Origin: Paraglomus occultum
Lineage: Eukaryota > Glomeromycota > Glomeromycetes > Paraglomerales > Paraglomeraceae
Direction: 5' to 3'
Assembly: GCA_910592205.1 (NCBI GenBank)
Contig: CAJVPJ010000319.1
Location: forward strand, 1-28,832
DNA: 28,832 nt
Part shown: positions 7,790 through 28,475 of the stretch, one piece after another
How positions within the stretch are numbered: position 1 is the first letter of the stretch
Layout of the letters: each line of letters starts with the position of its first letter
Program-made: the position numbers and the translations under genes
The notes under the pieces: generated by a model
What the model saw: the letters and a program-made list of their open reading frames with translations, nothing else
Databases searched by the model: none
What the model was told of the DNA's origin: nothing

Positions 7790-9677
7790 GCTGTTGCTGC
7801 TGCTGCTGTTGCTGCTGTTGTTGCTGCTGCTGTTGCTGTTGTTGCGTTGGTTGATCTAGATGAGATTAAAATTGAGACTCGTATCAGCATCGGATATTAA
7901 ACAAAAAACATTTGGGCATTCAATTACTGTGTAACCTCTCTCGAGAACAGGTCTTCGACTAGAAATAGAAAAGTTAAGATTAATAACAATGTCGAGCAAT
8001 TTGCTTGATCGACAATAAAATCGATTCGAGTTCAACCAGTATTATTTACCATGTTGGGCAGCTCTGTTGTCTTTCTAGCCAACTTCGTAAACAATGAAAA
8101 TGAAATATATGTCCGCACGGTAACTTTTTGGGCGTATCTCCCATTCCATTATTTCTTGATTGAGTTCTTCCAGCTGCATTTGCTGGTTGATTATTTCCAT
8201 TATCAATAATGTTATTAATATTATTGTTGTTGTTGTTGTTGTTATTATTGTTGTTAATGTTATTATTGTTATTCAAATCATCCTGATTGCCATTAAAAGC
8301 AACCATGTCCTCACGGCATATGATACAGGTACGATCACTCAGTCGTTCCAATTCCTCATTAGTCGCATTTGGATAACGTTCATTCATATTTCTAGTAGCT
8401 CTACGATATCTTATTAGATCGCCGCACTTTTGAACGAAGGAGCGAAAAGTAATATAGACATCTCGTATTATATGAAGCGGTGGCCCATAATGATAAAGTA
8501 TTATGGCAAAGAATATGAGATATATTATCAGCTTGAAGAAATCTAGTCGACAAATGGGTGAACAGAATCAGTCAAATGTCACAAGATTTGAAATTTAAAC
8601 AAGACTAAATCTTGAAAGTATACCCGTCACAAGCTCCAGATAGAACACATAGATCGACTTGTTTTCCCAAGGTTCTTCACGTCTCATATCTATAACATTC
8701 AATAGATACTTGAGGAATGTAGCAATGACAGTACAAGCCAATATGGAATACTACGCGTCAAATATGCAGATCACAAGTCAGTCATAAGTACAAACGGCAT
8801 TGCTCGCTAAAAAATTATTACTTACCTCAAAAGCAAACATTATCATCATATTTGCGCCTTTTTGCCGTGTCACATTAATAGCATGCATTACAAGAAGCGA
8901 GTCCACCGAACACAATATCTCCATCAATGCCAACATTCGCACATGAAATAGCAAGGAAACAGCAGGCGATTGCCCCATCTACGCATAAAATCATTTTCAG
9001 TTAGCCAGAGAACATAATCTCTGCAGAATTCCACATCTCCGCACTCACAAACTCGATTCGATCCTGACATAGCCAATGGAATATTTTTAAGAACAACAGC
9101 GTTGTAAATGTCACCACGAATTTCGTATCAAATTCGTCTCGAAATATCGTCATCGCAAGACACGTTTCCGTAACTGCGTACCATGCTCTCTCATATAGAT
9201 GCTGCAGGAAAAACAGTGGGCATGATGAGAATTGAAGGTTCGCAAATAAAAAAACAAAAGATCTACTCAACGGCAACAAACTTCAATCTCCACGGCTCGT
9301 AACCGTCCAAAAAAGATACGAAAAAGTATCTGCCCGAAAACGAGTGTCAAGAATAATCCCATATTCATTAAAATCTGGAAAATAGAGAGTGTGTGCGTAA
9401 GAACCTTGAAATTGGTAAGACACTCTTTGATAACATTATTTGAGTCGGTGGCCATTCCAACAGATTCAACACAGGAGTATACTAATTACACCGTCCCAAC
9501 CTTGCTACATAAAGTAATGTTACATTCCTCCGGAGTATGACATACCATTAAACACGCACTTGACTTTGATAGGTAAATACAAGCCGAGTAAAAGTTGCTC
9601 CGCTGTCTGAGTGCATTTCCGACGATCGAGATCGTCAAAAGCGTGCTGACACTGCCATACACTGCCCAGCGAACCAT
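6898..9677 (-). CDS. HRD1: HRD1/synoviolin-type ER membrane E3 ubiquitin ligase
   Basis: Nine exons on the minus strand: 9677-9546, 9374-9282, 9201-9049, 8978-8826, 8750-8624, 8542-8050, 7958-7936, 7855-7484 and 7418-6898, giving 688 residues. It is the ligase of ER-associated degradation, anchored by an N-terminal multi-pass domain (about 1-250), with motifs such as [38 protein letters not shown] and FLKIFHWL. The RING-H2 ligands are C292, C295, C362, H364, H367, C370, C381 and C384. Between C295 and C362 sits an Asn-rich insertion; metazoan HRD1 has only about 12 residues there. Exon 7 is 23 nt and the last zinc ligand codon is split TG/T. A 31-Gln tract follows the RING, then a Pro/Gly-rich tail and a C-terminal helical, Ser-rich part. 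The exon 8-9 junction (donor GTAATG, 65 bp intron) is inferred from phase only. Confidence 0.92.
7752..7844 (-). repeat. CAA/CAG trinucleotide repeat encoding 31 glutamines in HRD1
   Basis: Thirty-one consecutive minus-strand codons are CAA or CAG, a mixed and therefore partly stabilised repeat. It lies in exon 8 of HRD1, twelve residues after the last RING cysteine. The plus-strand frame through it reads as an artificial Val/Ala-rich ORF (7679-7900) and is not a gene. Confidence 0.95.
8200..8276 (-). repeat. AAT/AAC trinucleotide repeat encoding Asn-rich insertion in the HRD1 RING
   Basis: Minus-strand AAT/AAC codons with a few ATT encode an almost pure Asn run broken by Ile and Asp. It lies between zinc ligands two and three of the RING finger. 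The frame stays open across it and the flanking RING residues are intact. Confidence 0.9.
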
Positions 9678-14393: not shown

Positions 14394-16259
14394 ATGTCTT
14401 CCCCATCATTCATCAGAGTTTCATCAACACATTTTACATGGGGAGACAAGCCATACTTTCTTGTCGGTGCCAATTATTGGCAAGCGATGAATCTATCCAT
14501 GTCGACAGGAAATAGAGCGAGAGTGCTTCAAGATTTGGAGAAATTGAAACAAATGGGCATCAATAATGTGAGAATCATGGCCGGAAGCGAAGGGCCTAAT
14601 GAAGAACCGTTTAGAATGAAGCCGGCTTTGATGAAGGAACCAAATGTATACGATGAGGACGTGTTTAAAGGTAATGATAGTAAACGAAAAGGCGGAATGA
14701 TTATTCTTTGGAATGTGATAGAAACAACGTGACAGTATTATGCGCTTGTGCATTTAGGTTTAGACTGGTTCTTGGATCAACTGACCAAGTTTGATATGAC
14801 CGCTACGATGGTTTGTATACTATCACTTTCAATACTTTAACAATATGCGTTATAATTATCTTGTCTCTTTTTCTCGTTCTCTTTCCCGTTTTTCCTGTAA
14901 CTTACCCAAACATATTTACACGCTCGCATCAAAACTTCAAGACTCTCTCAAACTTTTGGCAATGGTCTGGCGGCTTTGCGCAATACGTATCTTGGTGCGA
15001 CCCCACACATCCCCCCATTCCATACCCGACATCTTCAGATTTCACAGCCTTTGAACGCTTTGCGGCTCGCTTCTATTCCGATCCTTCCATCTATTCCGCC
15101 TGCCAGTCACTTTACCAGCATCACATCAAGACGGTCCTCACGCGCAGAAACACATTTAACGGGAAGTTGTACAAGGAAGATCCCGTAATATTCGCGTGGG
15201 AGTTGGCAAACGAACCACAAATAGTTTTGGGAGATAATGGGAGAAAGATCGTCAGGACTTGGATCGAAGAAAGTGCAAGGGTGATCAAGGATCTGGATGC
15301 AAATCATTTGGTGACGACGGGAGCCGAAGGGAAGAATGGGAAAGAGTGGTTTCTGGAAATGCACGAGTGCAGCAATATCGGTATGAAATAATAACGTAAC
15401 AAGGATGAATGTGAGAAATAGATCATGAGGGGGGTGGGGCGGGGCAAGGATATTTTCAAAAATGGTATTAGAGTACTAACAGGGTATACAGATACGCTCT
15501 CCTGAAAAAAACTGACGGGCAGAAATGAAAACTGATTATTAAATCTTGACTCTCCCTCTTCCTCTTCTTCTCGCAGATTATGCAAGTGCTCACGTTTGGG
15601 TAGAAAATTGGGGATATTACAATTCAAATGATCCATCAACCGAGAATTACTCGCGAGCAGAAAATTTCATGTTGACTTTTATTGATAATGTTAGCAAATG
15701 GTCTACGGAAGAGTTGGGAAAACCCGTATATCTTGCAGAGTATGGTAAGAAGAATTTGCTCAAACGAGAATCCTCCATGTCAGTTTTTATCCTTTCCCCC
15801 GTCTCCCCTCGTAATCTATTCCAATCTTTGATCCTACACACCCCGCTTTCCAGGCCTTGCAAGAGACGGTTGGCTTCCTGTATCCAAATACTCCCCATCA
15901 GCATCGACAACAAATCGTAATAAATACTATAGCTCACTAATGAACAAAGTTTTGTCACTCGAGAAATCACGCTCTTTTAGTGGACAGGCATTTTGGGCAT
16001 ATTCCGGAATTGCGAGACCGAACGATTCGCCACCTCAATGGTTGGGTGATCCGCCTCACGAGCGTAAGTTTGGAAAGAGGGGAGGGAAGGTGTGGATAAG
16101 GAGGAAAAACAAGACTATTCTGTGCCAGAATGTATGGATTAGAATTGACAAATTCTGTGTTTTTTAGCTGCTGGCTGGTATTCGGTGTACGATGCCGATG
16201 AAGAGACATTGCAGATAATAAGAGAACATTCAGATAAAGTCAAAAAGTTGGCGGAATGA
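14394..16259 (+). CDS. GH5-family mannan endo-1,4-beta-mannosidase
   Basis: Six exons: 14394-14670, 14758-14810, 14942-15380, 15577-15744, 15854-16063 and 16168-16259, giving 412 residues. It hydrolyses beta-1,4-mannan backbones. Family 5 (TIM-barrel) features are in order: FLVGANYWQAMNL near the N-terminus, NNVRIMAGSEG, SNFWQWSGGFAQYVSW, FAWELANEP with the acid/base Glu201, HVWVENWGYY, and YLAEYG with the nucleophile Glu311, then GQAFWAYSG near the C-terminus. The pattern resembles subfamily 7 mannanases. The called start gives no signal peptide, although these enzymes are normally secreted. It converges with the gene ending at 16487. Confidence 0.93.
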
Positions 16260-21132: not shown

Positions 21133-22705
21133 AACAGGTCAAGTTATTTGTTTATAAGTAGAATAAGGGATTATATGAAAATGAAGAGCTTTTCCAAAAT
21201 TTCGACAATGCCTTGCAAACATTTAAGCAAATTGTCAAACATGTCATTTGTTATATATGCGAGTATTTCTTGTAGTTTATTCATAACATGCCAAATTGAA
21301 AGTCAAAGTATGTCACATCAAAAAGTAAATAAACATAATACAATCATACAAACATTCGATAATTTATATAGGTTCTCCTTTCACTTTTGTATAATGTATT
21401 GGACGTGTCTTGGAACCAATATTTGTATAAAAAGGTGTCATCTGATATCCATCTCCATATTAATATCCAGGCTAGTCTTTTTGTGGACCTCTTTAAAGTA
21501 CCATATGAACAATGTTTATTTGTAAGGGCACTTCCCCTCTCCCCTCCTCCCCAATATAGCAATCAGATACAAACTAAGAAATAATAGTAAAGAGATCAAC
21601 CGTCTTAATGGCAACTCGTCATTATCTCCAATACCATATGATGAGACGTCATTACAAAGTCTCGCTTGGTTGCTTAGAATGTAAAAGAAAAAACTCTCGG
21701 CAGTAAAATCAGCACTCTAAAAAAACACAGGCTACAAAGTAACGTTAGCAGTATGTAGTGTGAGATGCAAAAGCATGGCCTGTACCGTATGGCCTGTACC
21801 GCGTGGCCTGTACCGCATGGCATGGCCTGTATCGCATGGGACTTGTTCATTTCGGCAATCGAAAAATCGCAATCGATGTAAAAGAAAAGACGTTGGATTT
21901 ACATTAACGCTAACTCGATATGTTTCCAACTCCGAAAAATGATGGGCGGGTCTATTACGATTACTATAAAATCCTAAACAGTATCTGAATTGATAAAGTT
22001 TTTGAGTACGTTGTACGTACAAAAAATATGGTCTATGGTCGGTGCATAAATCGTATGACAGTGTGCTACTACCCCTTCAAGGTGAGATCATGATGCTAAG
22101 CTGTATATGTTTAGGCTGATTGAACGTGATCAAGGGTGAGGGAGTTCGCGTAATCAAGGAAATCCAAACACCTGACAATTTAAAGGACTATTTATAGCAA
22201 ACCCCTTTTTGTACACATAAATGTTTTTTCATATTCCAGATGAAAGAGTTTCAGTTCTATTTGATTGGGACGTATTCTCAATGCAAGCCCTTGTTCAATC
22301 AATGCATAACTAGAATTGCAGGTAGGCCAAGACCAAACTGTTGGGAGATGGACCTCGTGTAACGTATCCGATACTTAATGATACGGGTTTGAAGACGATA
22401 GGCTGTTTAGAAACCAAACGTCAAGAAGCAGTCCGGCATGAGAAGGTCGCATTATTCGCATTGGTATTACATGAGTCAATTTTTATTGCCTCAAAGTACA
22501 GTCGTTGCATATGCTAATATATCAAGTAATTATTAGTGGTATAAAGCGAATGATTATCTATCTGTATTAAATATGATGCCGATGCTTGTGAAAATGACTC
22601 ATCTACAATAAAAAATTGATTTCGAAAATAAAACAATTTGCGTAAACAACCATTCATGCAATACAACGTTTAAAGAGCACCAGAAAAAAAGCCTCAAAAA
22701 CATTC
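21133..22705. other. 1.6 kb intergenic region
   Basis: It starts with the PTC7 3' UTR. A 125-residue plus-strand frame (21148-21525) has no recognised family and is not called. The region holds the 14 bp tandem repeat at 21775-21839. Confidence 0.45.
21775..21839. repeat. 14 bp tandem repeat, about 4.5 copies
   Basis: The unit ATGGCCTGTACCGC occurs at 21775, 21789, 21803 and 21822 with one or two changes per copy; a 5-base ATGGC slip lies between the third and fourth copies. It is markedly more GC-rich than the surrounding DNA. Confidence 0.9.
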
Positions 22706-22770
22706 TTCTTTGTTCCTTCTTTGTTCCTTCTTTGTTCCTTCTTTTTTCCTTCTTTTTTCCTTCTTTTTTA
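22706..22770. repeat. 11 bp pyrimidine tandem repeat
   Basis: Three copies of TTCTTTGTTCC are followed by two of TTCTTTTTTCC and a partial copy. The strand asymmetry is complete: all pyrimidine except single G. It lies 16 bp past the stop codon of the minus-strand Myb gene, so it would be transcribed as a purine-rich repeat in its 3' UTR. Confidence 0.9.
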
Positions 22771-22785
22771 CCCCAAAATCCATTT

Positions 22786-25390: not shown

Positions 25391-25699
25391 ATGGGGCATG
25401 CTGCAACAAAACCAGACAAAGTGAACATTTGATTATGTGATGTAAATGAGAGGCTGATTATGATGTGGCTGTAAAATTGACCAGTATGACTGATGACGTT
25501 TTGAAAAGTAATAATGGTGCTCATTCATAACTTATGGACTTGTTAATTTTAATGCTCACTTTATTATACCAGAATGTGATGAATATAAACCATAATGTAA
25601 TTAATATAGGATTGCCCTATATATATATATATATAATATTAATATGAAACTAATTTACATTAAATCCACCATGGAACCCAAAAATTACAGTACTAAGCA
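25391..25699 (+). repeat. direct repeat, left copy
   Basis: This 309 bp segment matches 26958-27259 along its whole length, with scattered substitutions and small indels, by eye about 80-85% identity. It starts at ATGGGGCATGCTGCAACAAA and ends at ...AGCA; the flanks do not match. It contains the C-terminal codons of a reading frame (MGHAATKPDKVNI then TGA), a non-coding middle with a (TA)n run near 25619-25635, and the first codons of the next ORF (KLIYIKSTMEPKNYS). Confidence 0.92.
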
Positions 25700-25829
25700 T
25701 CTAAAAAAAGCTCAAGGAGAGAAAATTGCCCCTTACGTTTTTAAAATCAATGATACTCAAACTCTCCAGGAATATCTAGATAAAAAAAAAATTACTTATG
25801 AAATTTACCAAGAGGAAAGGAAATCATAA
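25644..25829 (+). CDS. short Lys-rich ORF starting in the left repeat
   Basis: A 61-residue frame, rich in Lys, Glu, Ile and Tyr, with no family I recognise (EKIAPYVFKINDTQTLQEYL). Its start lies inside the left direct repeat, and the matching start in the right repeat (MEPKNYS near 27231) is cut short after a few residues by the repeat end. At its 3' end a shift to another frame continues openly as ALTPTHDKPRKKRRRAE up to a TAA near 25892, so the ORF may be frameshifted. The second ATG (MEPKNYS) could be the true start. It lacks Trp, so the genetic code used is not testable from it. Confidence 0.4.
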   Translation: MKLIYIKSTMEPKNYSTKHLKKAQGEKIAPYVFKINDTQTLQEYLDKKKITYEIYQEERKS

Positions 25830-25944
25830 CTAATAAACGAGCATTAACACCAACACATGATAAACCAAGAAAGAAAAGAAGACGGGCAGAATAAACAATC
25901 AAATTATTATTAGAATACCTTTTTTGTGTTTCAAGCAACTTTGT

Positions 25945-26487
25945 CTATCATTCATCCTCTTCACCTTCAAACTCTTCCCCTTCAGCTTCAGCTGGTTGAT
26001 TTCATCAAGTGGTGACCTTTTTTCACTTAATAATAGCTCAAATAATACCTCCAACTAAGCTGAGTAATCCTAGTCCTGATAAGATAGCAGCAGGATTACT
26101 TCATCTTCATCTCGGCAAGAATTGTTCACTATCTTTAAAGAGCTTTTCATACTTCTTAGTAGCATGATTTTGCCCACCTAACTTTTCCGCATAGAATTTA
26201 ACAAATTCCCTCTTCAGTAAATTCTTTGCCATCTCCATAAATGGTGCGATCTAATAAGATTAGGTTATCTTTACTGTCTTCATAATTTTTTATCTCTGCT
26301 AAGATACTTTCTTTGAGACTACTAATTCTTGTAAAGCAATGGTTCCCACCACTACTTTGGGATCTCGGGTAAAGAATCAGTCTAATCAAGCTCGATTGTC
26401 AGCACTCACTTCAGGAAGATCATAATAATAAGTATCATCCATTAACCCCTCTTGTTTTTTATTTTCTCATTTGCCAATACCTATCAC
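25945..26487 (-). pseudogene. broken mycoplasma-like gene readable only with UGA = Trp
   Basis: Read on the minus strand with UGA as tryptophan, three open segments follow one another. Segment 1 (from 26487) carries DLPEVSADNRAWLDWFFTRD, with three in-frame UGA. Segment 2 (the frame of 26389-26198) carries SLKESILAEIKNY and LILLDRTIYGDGKEFTEE. Segment 3 carries FVKFYAEKLGGQNHATKKYE, then a membrane-like PAAILSGLGLLSLVGGII and an acidic tail EGEEFEGEEDE, with eight in-frame UGA, ending at TAG. No TGG occurs in segments 1 or 3. Two frame changes join the segments, so it is a relic. LILLDRTIYGD resembles the deoxynucleoside-kinase D-R-S/T motif, but the membrane segment does not fit that family. 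The product is uncertain. Confidence 0.55.
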
Positions 26488-26489
26488 AT

Positions 26490-26999
26490 ATGTTTCTGTC
26501 ATCCCATCCCACTTACACTACCTCTCTCCAACCTTGTTCACAAACTAAAACAATATTATTAGTGAAGAAACTCTCAACTGAAGAGAGCAAAGAAAAAATA
26601 AAGGATTTTATCAAGAGCATAGCACCCAATTATATGTTTCATAAAGTGAACAAGAGAAAATTGAAAAATACCAGAAGCAATGAGCAAGTGCTTGATAAAT
26701 TCTATAAAAATAAAAAGCCCCTACTACTACCATATAAATATGGCAAGAATGAAACAAGTCTGAATCTGTCAATGTTTGGAAAGGTATTAGACAAAGAACC
26801 AATGCATCATGGAGAAAAAAGAAAGTTTTCTGAATATGTATATGTTCAGGATGATTCAGGCCTGTCTGCTAAACACTACTTGATAACATTTGTTGGCCAG
26901 TCAGGCTCAGGCCAAGACAGTTTCAGTGATTGCTTTGACAAAGCAATATTTTGTCATATGGGGCATGCTGCAACAAAACCAAACAAAGTGAACATTTGA
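26490..26999 (+). CDS. uncharacterised Lys-rich ORF ending in the right repeat
   Basis: A 169-residue frame with no family recognised. The middle is Lys-rich (KVNKRKLKNTRSNEQ, FYKNKKPLLLPYKYGKN) and the C-terminus carries LITFVGQSGSGQDSFSDCFD then CHMGHAATKPNKVNI. GQSGSGQDS only loosely resembles a P-loop and lacks the Lys, so I do not claim nucleotide binding. The final 13 codons lie in the direct repeat and recur in the left copy with one change, without the rest of the ORF. If UGA were read through, the frame would go on for about 16 codons to TAG, and the two repeat copies differ there by an in-frame 6-base indel. The start at 26490 is arbitrary. Confidence 0.4.
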   Translation: MFLSSHPTYTTSLQPCSQTKTILLVKKLSTEESKEKIKDFIKSIAPNYMFHKVNKRKLKNTRSNEQVLDKFYKNKKPLLLPYKYGKNETSLNLSMFGKVLDKEPMHHGEKRKFSEYVYVQDDSGLSAKHYLITFVGQSGSGQDSFSDCFDKAIFCHMGHAATKPNKVNI

Positions 27000-27259
27000 C
27001 TATGTGACATAATAATAAATGAGAGGCTGATTATGATGTAGCTGTGAAATTGACCAGGGTGATTGATTATGATGACGTTTTGAAGTAAGAATGGTGCTTA
27101 TAGACTGGTTAATTTTAATGCTCACCTTATCATACCAGAAGGTGATTAATACAAACCAGAACAGGATTAATATAGTATTACCTCTATATATAAAAATATT
27201 AATATAAAACTAATTTATATCAAATCCACTATGGAACCAAAGAATTACAGTATACAGCA
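26958..27259 (+). repeat. direct repeat, right copy
   Basis: This 302 bp copy pairs with 25391-25699. It begins at the same ATGGGGCATGCTGCAACAAA and ends at the same AGCA. Its right edge is the exact point where leucine-rich-repeat coding similarity of the neighbouring minus-strand pseudogene stops. Confidence 0.92.
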
Positions 27260-28475
27260 CTATTAGAAGCATTCTAATTTTCAATGCTTTTCCTAACGCA
27301 GTCACTCCTTCAACACTGATAGAATTTGTACTAATATTCAAAGAAGTTAAAGTATAATTGGTTTCCAAAGCTTTTGCCAACGCCATTGCTCCGTTATCTT
27401 CAATATTATTATAATAGAGATTTAACTGAGTCAAAGTGTAATTTAACTCTAAAGCTTTACCCAAAGTCGTGGTTAAAGTGCCAAGCCCAACAAAGCCTAA
27501 ATCTAAACAAACTAAGGAGCAATCTCCCATTAGAAGTTTACATAAAGCTGTGTTGCCTGCATTCCCGTTATGATTGCCGTACAATTCCAAAGAAGTTAAT
27601 GTCGAGTTTAATTTTAATGCATTTGCCAAAGCCAAAATTCCTTCGTCTCCAATAGCGCTATATGAAAGATTTAAAAAGATCAACCGCATAGTCGTTTCTA
27701 GAGCTTTTGATAAAGCCGCTGCGCCAATATCTCCAATTTCGTTTCTGTCAAGTCTTAAGTAGGTCAAAGAAAAATTAGATCGCAAAGCTTCAGACAACGC
27801 TATTGCTCCTACTACTACGTCTCCAATCTCATTATCGTTCAAATACAAGGAATGCAAAGTAAAATTCGAAACTAAAGCTTTTGTTAAAAAAATTACTCCT
27901 GTATCTCCGATCTTATTTTTACCAAGATCTAAGGACGTTAAAAAACTTCATGTTTTCTACCAAACTTGATATTACAGTCTCACACAACTGATTATTTCTA
28001 AGATTTAGAGTGTTTAATGATGTGTTCATTTTTAGAACGTTGGCTAAAGCCGCCACTTCCGTGTCTCCGATTACATTGTCATGAAGTTGTAAGGATGTTA
28101 AACAAGAGCTTGATTCTAGGGCGCGCACTATTTTTCCTGTTCCACTTTTGATGCACCCATAAATTTCAACTGTTTTTAAATTTTGCTGGCATTGAATGGT
28201 TTTGCCAACTCTTCTTCATCGTTGCTTGCAAGAGAAATTTTTATGTCTTCAAGATTTGATAGGAGTTTGCTTGCTGACGCTAACAGTTCTCTCTTCACGT
28301 ACTTTCCGTGAAGAGTAATTTGTTTCAGACGTCTAAAGGCTGTATTGGCATTAGGTAACGTGAAGAGATTTAAGCCATCATTAATTGCAGAAAACCGACA
28401 CTTCAGCGTGAGGTTAACGCAATTGATTTGTGAAGAGTGCGAAACAACTAGTTTGCATAGAATAAGGCATAAATC
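27210..28475 (-). pseudogene. truncated, frameshifted RI-type leucine-rich-repeat gene
   Basis: The minus strand encodes at least ten ribonuclease-inhibitor-type repeats of about 28 residues, for example LTYLRLDRNEIGDIGAAALS and LTSLELYGN. An N-terminal region precedes them (from 28475: LCLILCKLVVSHSS, FRRLKQITLHGKYVKREL, NLEDIKISL). Two single-base frame breaks are needed to read it through: one near 28190-28205 and one at the A6 run near 27943-27948. The C-terminus leaves the repeat pattern at ALGKALK and ends in hydrophobic residues encoded by the antisense of the right direct repeat (27210-27259). RI-type LRRs are protein-interaction scaffolds and are abundant in mycorrhizal fungi. I call it a pseudogene; the upstream end is undefined. 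Confidence 0.75.

What the first reader, a model, noticed from the sequence alone, without database searches (positions are those of the whole stretch)
25945..26487. Gene relic that only makes sense with UGA as tryptophan inside a fungal contig
On the minus strand two long segments are interrupted only by UGA (three and eight times) and not by UAA or UAG, and neither segment uses UGG. The UGA positions sit where Trp is natural, such as RAWLDW and IIWAIIKWKK around a membrane helix. This is the signature of the Mollicutes code. Arbuscular mycorrhizal fungi are known to harbour Mollicutes-related endobacteria and gene exchange between them is reported. Here the relic has two frame breaks and lies within a repeat-bounded insert beside a fungal LRR pseudogene, which favours an old transfer over simple contamination.
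Basis: partly seen in the sequence, partly recalled or inferred. Interest (0 to 1): 0.85.

Follow-up and report, generated by a model that had tools for sequence, protein, structure and literature searches.

The report
Bacterial-code transposon in fungal nuclear DNA
A stretch of fungal DNA that looked like one stray gene is a broken piece of a mobile element present in many copies in this genome, whose genes make sense only in the altered genetic code used by bacteria living inside such fungi, which suggests the element moved between bacterium and host.

Summary
The UGA=Trp reading is right, but the object is larger than one transferred gene. The window fragment is the 3' end of a cargo gene of a DNA transposon family dispersed through the same 32.3-Mb assembly (terminus motif 313 times, reversed control 0). 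Two elements held with both ends are 7-8 kb long, with inverted repeats, a DDE-type (DUF7869) transposase and differing cargo. Cargo and transposase both carry in-frame TGA at tryptophan positions: in an unbiased alignment 85 of 117 TGA, but 4 of 24 TAA/TAG, fall on Trp of a relative. Codon-position bias shows protein-level selection while these TGA stood. A host gene in the window uses TGG at conserved Trp. The transposase has relatives in Geosiphon, Ambispora and Diversispora; its sister clade includes two proteins named Candidatus Moeniiplasma, the Mollicutes endobacterium of such fungi. I favour a transposon native to a UGA=Trp compartment, most likely the endobacterium, that inserts into host nuclear DNA and dies there. 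Not shown: Moeniiplasma DNA with these ends, direction of transfer, insertion machinery. The UGA pattern in the window alone is not beyond chance (42 of 200 simulations).

The parts
25391..25880 (.). Terminal inverted repeat (about 490 bp) of transposon copy 1; outer end at 25391-25393 (ATGGGGCATGCTGCAAC...)
   Evidence: Same end with different flanks at other loci; terminus motif 313x in the genome, control 0; inverted pairs in L055 and L056
25644..25826 (+). Remnant of the small repeat-borne ORF 'B' (MKLIYIKSTMEPKNYST...), 61 codons here, about 85-91 codons in other copies, no Trp
   Evidence: codon-position differences 0.20/0.15/0.29 over 136 pairs
25945..26250 (-). UGA=Trp cargo gene, C-terminal part: end of soluble region, membrane helix, acidic tail; 7 TGA
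   Evidence: matches P0001 up to its C-terminus
26198..26458 (-). Same cargo gene, middle segment in a second frame (KESILAEIKNYEDSKDNLILLDRTIYGDGKEFTEEGI); 4 TGA in the whole frame
26299..26517 (-). Same cargo gene, upstream segment (DDTYYYDLPEVSADNRAWLDWFFTRDPKVVVGTIALQEL), same frame as 25945-26250; homology begins near 26421-26445, so the copy is 5'-truncated
26446..26957 (+). Sequence between the two repeat fragments, with a standard-code ORF (26490-26999) matched nowhere else in the assembly
   Evidence: 1 match, the window itself (4 candidates scored)
26958..27277 (.). Second terminal-repeat fragment, same orientation, interior side cut off at the LRR gene
27278..27956 (-). Leucine-rich-repeat gene fragment that the second repeat fragment abuts
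   Evidence: LRR_6 E 2.4e-30 for 27213-27956

Best explanation
The fragment is cargo of a terminal-inverted-repeat DNA transposon with a DDE (DUF7869) transposase. The element's transposase and cargo genes are written in a code where UGA is tryptophan. Its lineage evolved under protein-level selection in a compartment that reads UGA as Trp, most likely the genome of the Mollicutes-related endobacterium living in the fungus. From there the element, or its DNA, has repeatedly entered the fungal nuclear genome. It inserted with precise ends, cannot be translated by the fungal cytosol, and decays. Shown: the family, its ends, UGA at Trp in transposase and cargo, selection, TGG at conserved Trp of a host gene, and named Moeniiplasma relatives of the transposase. 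Inferred: that the endobacterium is the home, the direction of movement, and that bacterial-made or standard-code fungal transposase makes the nuclear insertions.
Against: The Moeniiplasma relatives are 51-52% identical, are known here only by record name (a MAG), and their DNA, flanks and codons were not seen. No named Mollicutes relative of the cargo was found. Fungal mitochondria may also read UGA as Trp. One copy spanning both Trp sites, C195, has no stop at all, so some copies may read in the standard code. One TAA column is shared by 3 cargo copies, which fits mobilisation of a dead copy inside the nucleus. Repeats within L055 and L056 are only 79-81% alike, and no clear target-site duplication was seen. 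Only 8 of 20 TGG in the cargo copies fall on Trp of P0001. If P0001 was itself called with code 4, part of the TGA-to-Trp match is shared TGA rather than independent Trp. Host code was checked on conserved Trp of one gene only.
Confidence: 0.62

Rival explanations
1. Fungal nuclear transposon read by UGA suppression: the fungus (or the element) supplies a tRNA or readthrough that decodes UGA as Trp, and the element lives wholly in the nucleus.
For: High copy number in the nuclear assembly; transposase-to-cargo order also in an Ambispora gene model; one shared TAA column.
Against: 14 TGA in 401 codons asks for near-complete reassignment, while a host gene has TGG at conserved Trp; no tRNA in 18 element loci. 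The genome-wide tRNA pattern was uninformative, since it failed to find even ordinary tRNA-Trp or tRNA-Cys.
Confidence: 0.12
2. Mitochondrial home: the element lives in fungal mitochondria, which may also read UGA as Trp, and nuclear copies are mitochondrial DNA transfers.
For: Same code reading; nuclear copies decay.
Against: Named relatives include an endobacterium record; no mitochondrial relative was named among the 120 listed hits; precise ends and inverted repeats are unlike passive mitochondrial transfers. No mitochondrial collection was searched.
Confidence: 0.08
3. Standard-code fungal DUF7869 transposons captured endobacterial cargo, and the few TGA in the transposase are decay; a standard-code helper moves the copies in trans.
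For: DUF7869 proteins annotated in the standard code with Trp at the first site exist in Rhizophagus; C195 spans both sites without a stop; the kinase-like gene of L056 has TGG at plausible Trp.
Against: TGA sits at the same two Trp sites in most listed well-kept copies and in other fungi; transposase selection with shared TGA; tree places the element with the MRE-labelled clade, not with Rhizophagus.
Confidence: 0.13
4. Assembly contamination or chimeras of endobacterial contigs.
For: MRE contigs are known in published fungal assemblies (PMC11423566).
Against: Different flanks at each end; copy on a 97-kb contig near trehalose-phosphatase and M16 peptidase genes; Geosiphon gene models on contigs of 0.26-2.36 Mb; no DnaA match.
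Confidence: 0.03
5. Base-change bias (for example TGG to TGA hypermutation) in a standard-code element.
For: A+T-rich element.
Against: At P0001 Trp sites 85 TGA but only 3 TAA and 1 TAG among 135 aligned; third-position excess shows selection, not mutation alone.
Confidence: 0.02

Closest known systems
DUF7869 (PF25273) transposase-like proteins of Rhizophagus nuclear genomes
   Same: Same domain, 39-46% identity, Trp at the first site (YDWAQN) in those aligned
   Different: Annotated in the standard code; fall outside the element plus MRE clade; Phe at the second site
Candidatus Moeniiplasma glomeromycotorum proteins I3273_02745 (P0082) and I3273_07265 (P0135)
   Same: DUF7869 (E 6.7e-16 and 2.6e-17); P0082 has Trp at both sites; sister clade
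   Different: Only 51-52% identical; P0135 starts after the first site and has Arg at the second; DNA and ends not seen
Cargo-carrying class II (DDE, terminal-inverted-repeat) transposons
   Same: Inverted repeats, DDE-fold transposase, differing cargo
   Different: Transposase and cargo need UGA=Trp in a genome where a tested host gene uses TGG; each repeat carries a small ORF
Fungus-endobacterium gene exchange reported for MRE (MGMT, PknD kinases; PMC10507103, Results part 1 read)
   Same: Same partners; kinases and LRR proteins recur
   Different: Those are single genes proposed to have gone from fungus to bacterium; here a mobile element in many nuclear copies

Membership tests
Class II TIR DNA transposon | Terminal inverted repeats with precise ends | tested here: met
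   L055 329-7368 and L056 299-8540, arms 79-81%; same end, different flanks
Class II TIR DNA transposon | Target-site duplication | tested here: inconclusive
   TA-rich flanks; L055 compatible with TA, L056 not
Class II TIR DNA transposon | DDE/RNase H-fold transposase | tested here: met
Class II TIR DNA transposon | Dispersed multicopy | tested here: met
   313 termini, control 0; 151 and 155 transposase matches, lower bounds
DUF7869 (PF25273) | Pfam match over cut-off | tested here: inconclusive
   Own copy L056 19.5 bits against cut-off 26; homologues P0082, P0135, P0126 pass
Gene written in code 4 (UGA=Trp) | In-frame TGA at Trp positions, TAA/TAG not | tested here: met
Mollicutes (MRE) mobile element | Relatives in a named Mollicutes record | tested here: met
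   Transposase only: P0082, P0135; not for the cargo
Mollicutes (MRE) mobile element | Same ends and cargo in endobacterial DNA | not testable with these tools
   GTDB scans with the cargo and with P0082 gave no relative; metagenome scans not available
Mitochondrial plasmid or transfer | Relatives in mitochondrial genomes | not tested
   No mitochondrial collection at hand

The most novel reading that the evidence does not exclude
A two-host transposon: expressed and kept functional in a Mollicutes endobacterium, repeatedly jumping into the nuclear DNA of the fungal host, carrying bacterial cargo genes across the domain boundary, with the difference in genetic code acting as a barrier that keeps it silent in the host.
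Probability: 0.4. Interest if true: 0.95.

Novelty: new variant of a known kind. Interest (0 to 1): 0.85.

Why it matters
If right, it gives a concrete vehicle for gene exchange between arbuscular mycorrhizal fungi and their Mollicutes endobacteria, in place of isolated horizontal-transfer cases. The code difference also makes direction readable: TGA at Trp marks DNA that was last selected outside the fungal cytosol, so each nuclear copy can be dated as an arrival. It also warns that AM-fungal gene models break at these codons, as seen in Geosiphon and Ambispora.

Tried and rejected
Rolling-circle or CRESS-Rep plasmid idea, from the weak PF02407 match of the small ORF (E 0.047-0.13) and the 1566-bp spacing of the window repeats: dropped once inverted repeats and a DDE-fold transposase were found. 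LINE-like 5'-truncation idea: dropped for the same reason. Pfam and NCBIfam named nothing over a cut-off for the coiled-coil cargo; its structure model is too poor to use (mean pLDDT 49.9). No relatives in phages (P0003), plasmids (P0082) or viral contigs (P0001, P0018, A2), nor in GTDB contigs. Search for a UGA-decoding tRNA: none in 18 element loci; genome patterns found not even ordinary tRNAs, so they say nothing. Literature: no paper found in the held library describes this element. Searches and numbers of papers holding the terms: 1; 26; 4; 7; 13; DUF7869: 0; 8; 41, 12 listed; 7. I read PMC10507103 (abstract, Results part 1 of 2, passages) and PMC11423566 (abstract, Observation part 1 of 2), and 12 passages of PMC10512289; the rest only as listings with the start of their abstracts. 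Most subscription papers are not held, including older MRE genome papers that I only recall. Labels that I recall rather than tested: 'coiled-coil', 'membrane helix' and 'acidic tail' of the cargo (read from the sequence), and that fungal mitochondria read UGA as Trp.

Full report
What was claimed and what is there. I find 7 TGA in 25945-26250, 4 in 26198-26458 and 3 in 26299-26517, the last with one TGG outside the homologous part. Taken alone this is weak: 42 of 200 simulated windows hold at least one such segment. Homology decides it. The fragment with relatives is about 25948-26421; its outer segments share one frame and the middle one is in another.

It is a dispersed repeat. The window is one contig (C319, 28,832 bp) of a 32.3-Mb assembly of 1408 contigs; the insert has 64 matches there (40 of 549 candidates scored). 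I lined up 27 ends taken from BLAST matches. They share one end, TGGGGCA(TG/GA)CTGCAACAAAACCAGACAAAGTGAAC, a few with changes, and their flanks differ. With up to 3 mismatches the motif occurs 313 times (153 forward, 160 reverse) and its reversed control 0 times. In the part of that list shown, many lie near contig ends with the interior running off the contig, as expected where an assembly breaks in a repeat (inference).

Anatomy. Two elements with both ends held are C43 (L055, 329-7368) and C174 (L056, 299-8540, 8242 bp). Their arms are inverted and 79-81% alike. In L056 each arm carries a small ORF B (within 494-802 + and 8036-8362 -). Between them lie a kinase-like gene (PF00069, E 5.4e-8), a DUF7869 protein (PF25273, E 7.9e-4, below its cut-off) and cargo. 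The cargo of L056 is a cysteine-rich and HIT-like protein with a C-terminal hydrophobic stretch. The relatives of its second part, P0010-P0021, come from unnamed contigs; P0016 carries both parts; P0017 matches HIT (E 1.9e-7) and P0018 weakly (E 0.0022, below cut-off). The cargo in the window family is a long protein with coiled-coil-like stretches, a C-terminal hydrophobic helix and an acidic tail. Its 9 relatives are gene models of Dentiscutata, Funneliformis and Ambispora (6) and unnamed ENA proteins (3). In C125, C33 and C139 it follows the transposase in the same orientation, and matches of both lie close together in C101, C42 and C18. An Ambispora leptoticha gene model (P0033) joins the same transposase and cargo start (by eye). 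So the window holds one terminal repeat, a B remnant and the 3' end of this cargo, then a second repeat fragment (26958-27277) abutting an LRR gene.

UGA is tryptophan. tblastn of P0001 under the standard code, so without bias to Trp, against 16 copies: 117 TGA, 85 on Trp; 24 TAA/TAG, 4 on Trp; 20 TGG, 8 on Trp; of 135 aligned Trp sites 85 are TGA and 8 TGG. P0002 gives 46 of 55 TGA and 3 of 22 TAA/TAG on Trp, P0006 24 of 38 and 1 of 13. In code-4 alignments of 17 copies there are 13 TGA-majority columns; 12 are Trp in P0001 and the other (336) is Trp in P0002. Where such columns depart from TGA, TGG is the commonest (8 of 23). The window copy itself has 9 TGA, 5 on Trp of P0001. The C520 copy is open for 401 codons with 14 TGA. 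A caveat: whether P0001, P0002 and P0006 have TGG or TGA at these sites is unknown.

The transposase is written the same way. C125: 388 codons, TGA at YD-W-AQN and TI-W-FYL, no TAA/TAG. Among the listed genome copies of 80% identity or more spanning both sites, 15 of 17 contain TGA, with 25 TGA to 9 TAA/TAG, and 1 of 17 (C195) has no stop; in a neighbouring region without these sites, 16 copies have 3 TGA, 4 TAA, and 11 of 16 no stop (top rows only). In other species, of 17 homologues among 120 that end early, 8 end at the residue just before the second site: four Geosiphon gene models (P0067, P0112, P0115, P0127) and four unnamed ENA or JGI proteins. Over the 120, the first site is Trp in 50 of 58 aligned and the second in 70 of 97; the second is Phe in 18, including the four Rhizophagus proteins.

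Selection. Codon-position differences (1/2/3): transposase C125 against C174 0.073/0.048/0.237; 15 transposase pairs 0.26/0.22/0.39; 125 cargo pairs 0.32/0.27/0.39; 136 B pairs 0.20/0.15/0.29. So the lineages changed under protein-level constraint while TGA stood at Trp. TAA/TAG codons in cargo copies are private in 27 of 29 columns, as if copies die one by one; one TAA column shared by three copies speaks the other way.

The host. In the window's GH5 gene (best PDB match an exo-beta-mannosidase, E 5.4e-34), 5 of the 6 TGG of one exon fall on Trp of that relative, for example NFWQWSGGF. The lack of TGA inside these stretches proves nothing, because they were chosen as standard-code ORFs. I did not test host code more widely. 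A cargo copy on the 97-kb contig C8 lies within about 3 kb of trehalose-phosphatase and M16-peptidase genes. No DnaA match was found in the assembly, while the same search rang in 13 of 14 control genomes, so no endobacterial chromosome is evident by that one marker. Cargo GC3 is 0.13-0.28, transposase 0.30-0.36, six host stretches 0.36-0.52; MRE assemblies recovered in PMC11423566 have 29-33% GC.

Whose element is it? Of 160 transposase homologues (120 listed), names include Geosiphon pyriformis on contigs of 0.26-2.36 Mb, Ambispora leptoticha, Diversispora, Gigaspora rosea, Rhizophagus, and two proteins of a Candidatus Moeniiplasma glomeromycotorum MAG on contigs of 124,773 and 27,320 bp. 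In a 35-row tree the clade with both Moeniiplasma proteins (7 rows, 100/99; one row is an Ambispora gene model) is sister to the AM-fungal element clade (21 rows, 99/99), joined at 100/96, with Rhizophagus outside (midpoint root). One member of the Moeniiplasma clade, P0126, continues into an LRR protein.

Mechanism. I favour a transposon at home in the endobacterium whose DNA enters nuclei and is inserted end-to-end by its own transposase made in the bacterium, or by a standard-code relative. In the fungal cytosol its genes would stop at the first UGA, so copies are dead on arrival. The family, the code reading and selection are shown; home, direction and insertion machinery are inferred. Rivals are UGA suppression in the fungus, a mitochondrial home, and a standard-code transposon with captured bacterial cargo.

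Novelty. No paper found in the held library describes it (searches listed under Tried and rejected). The parts are known kinds; a transposon written for another cell's genetic code and spread through a nuclear genome is a new variant as far as I can tell. On re-checking I corrected the number of frames, the Geosiphon contig range, the ORF B coordinates and the weight of the host-code test; none of these moved the odds.

Noticed in passing
26490-26999 (+): A 169-codon standard-code ORF between the two repeat fragments, matched only once in the assembly and with no Pfam or NCBIfam family over a cut-off; origin unknown.
   Followed up: partly
L056:3254-4324 (+): A protein-kinase-like gene inside the element with 4 TGG at plausible Trp positions; kinases and LRR proteins are also shared between MRE and Glomeromycotina according to PMC10507103.
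   Followed up: partly
L009:1605-1892 (-) and both arms of L056: Repeat-borne ORF B, about 85-91 codons, with a basic tail (PRKKRR) in several copies and codon-position bias of a real protein, without Trp; function unknown.
   Followed up: partly
G000:C195:633-962: A transposase copy spanning both Trp sites without any stop (84% identity): a possible standard-code version.
   Followed up: no
P0126 (JGI, 3265-bp contig): Moeniiplasma-clade transposase reading into a leucine-rich-repeat protein.
   Followed up: no
Geosiphon P0116: Gene model that starts like ORF B (MEPKNYST) and continues as transposase, so B and the transposase occur together in Geosiphon too.
   Followed up: no
P0108 (Ambispora leptoticha gene model): Groups with the Moeniiplasma protein P0135, not with the other Ambispora copies: endobacterial contig in that assembly or a separate transfer.
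   Followed up: no
L054:12-723 (-): Looks like a decayed Tc1/mariner-type transposase beside the element (recalled motif, not searched).
   Followed up: no
14394-15920 (+): Host GH5 exo-beta-mannosidase-like gene in pieces, apparently with introns.
   Followed up: partly
22694-22780: Short tandem array of 11-bp units (CTTCTTTGTTC type) some 2.6 kb from the insert.
   Followed up: no
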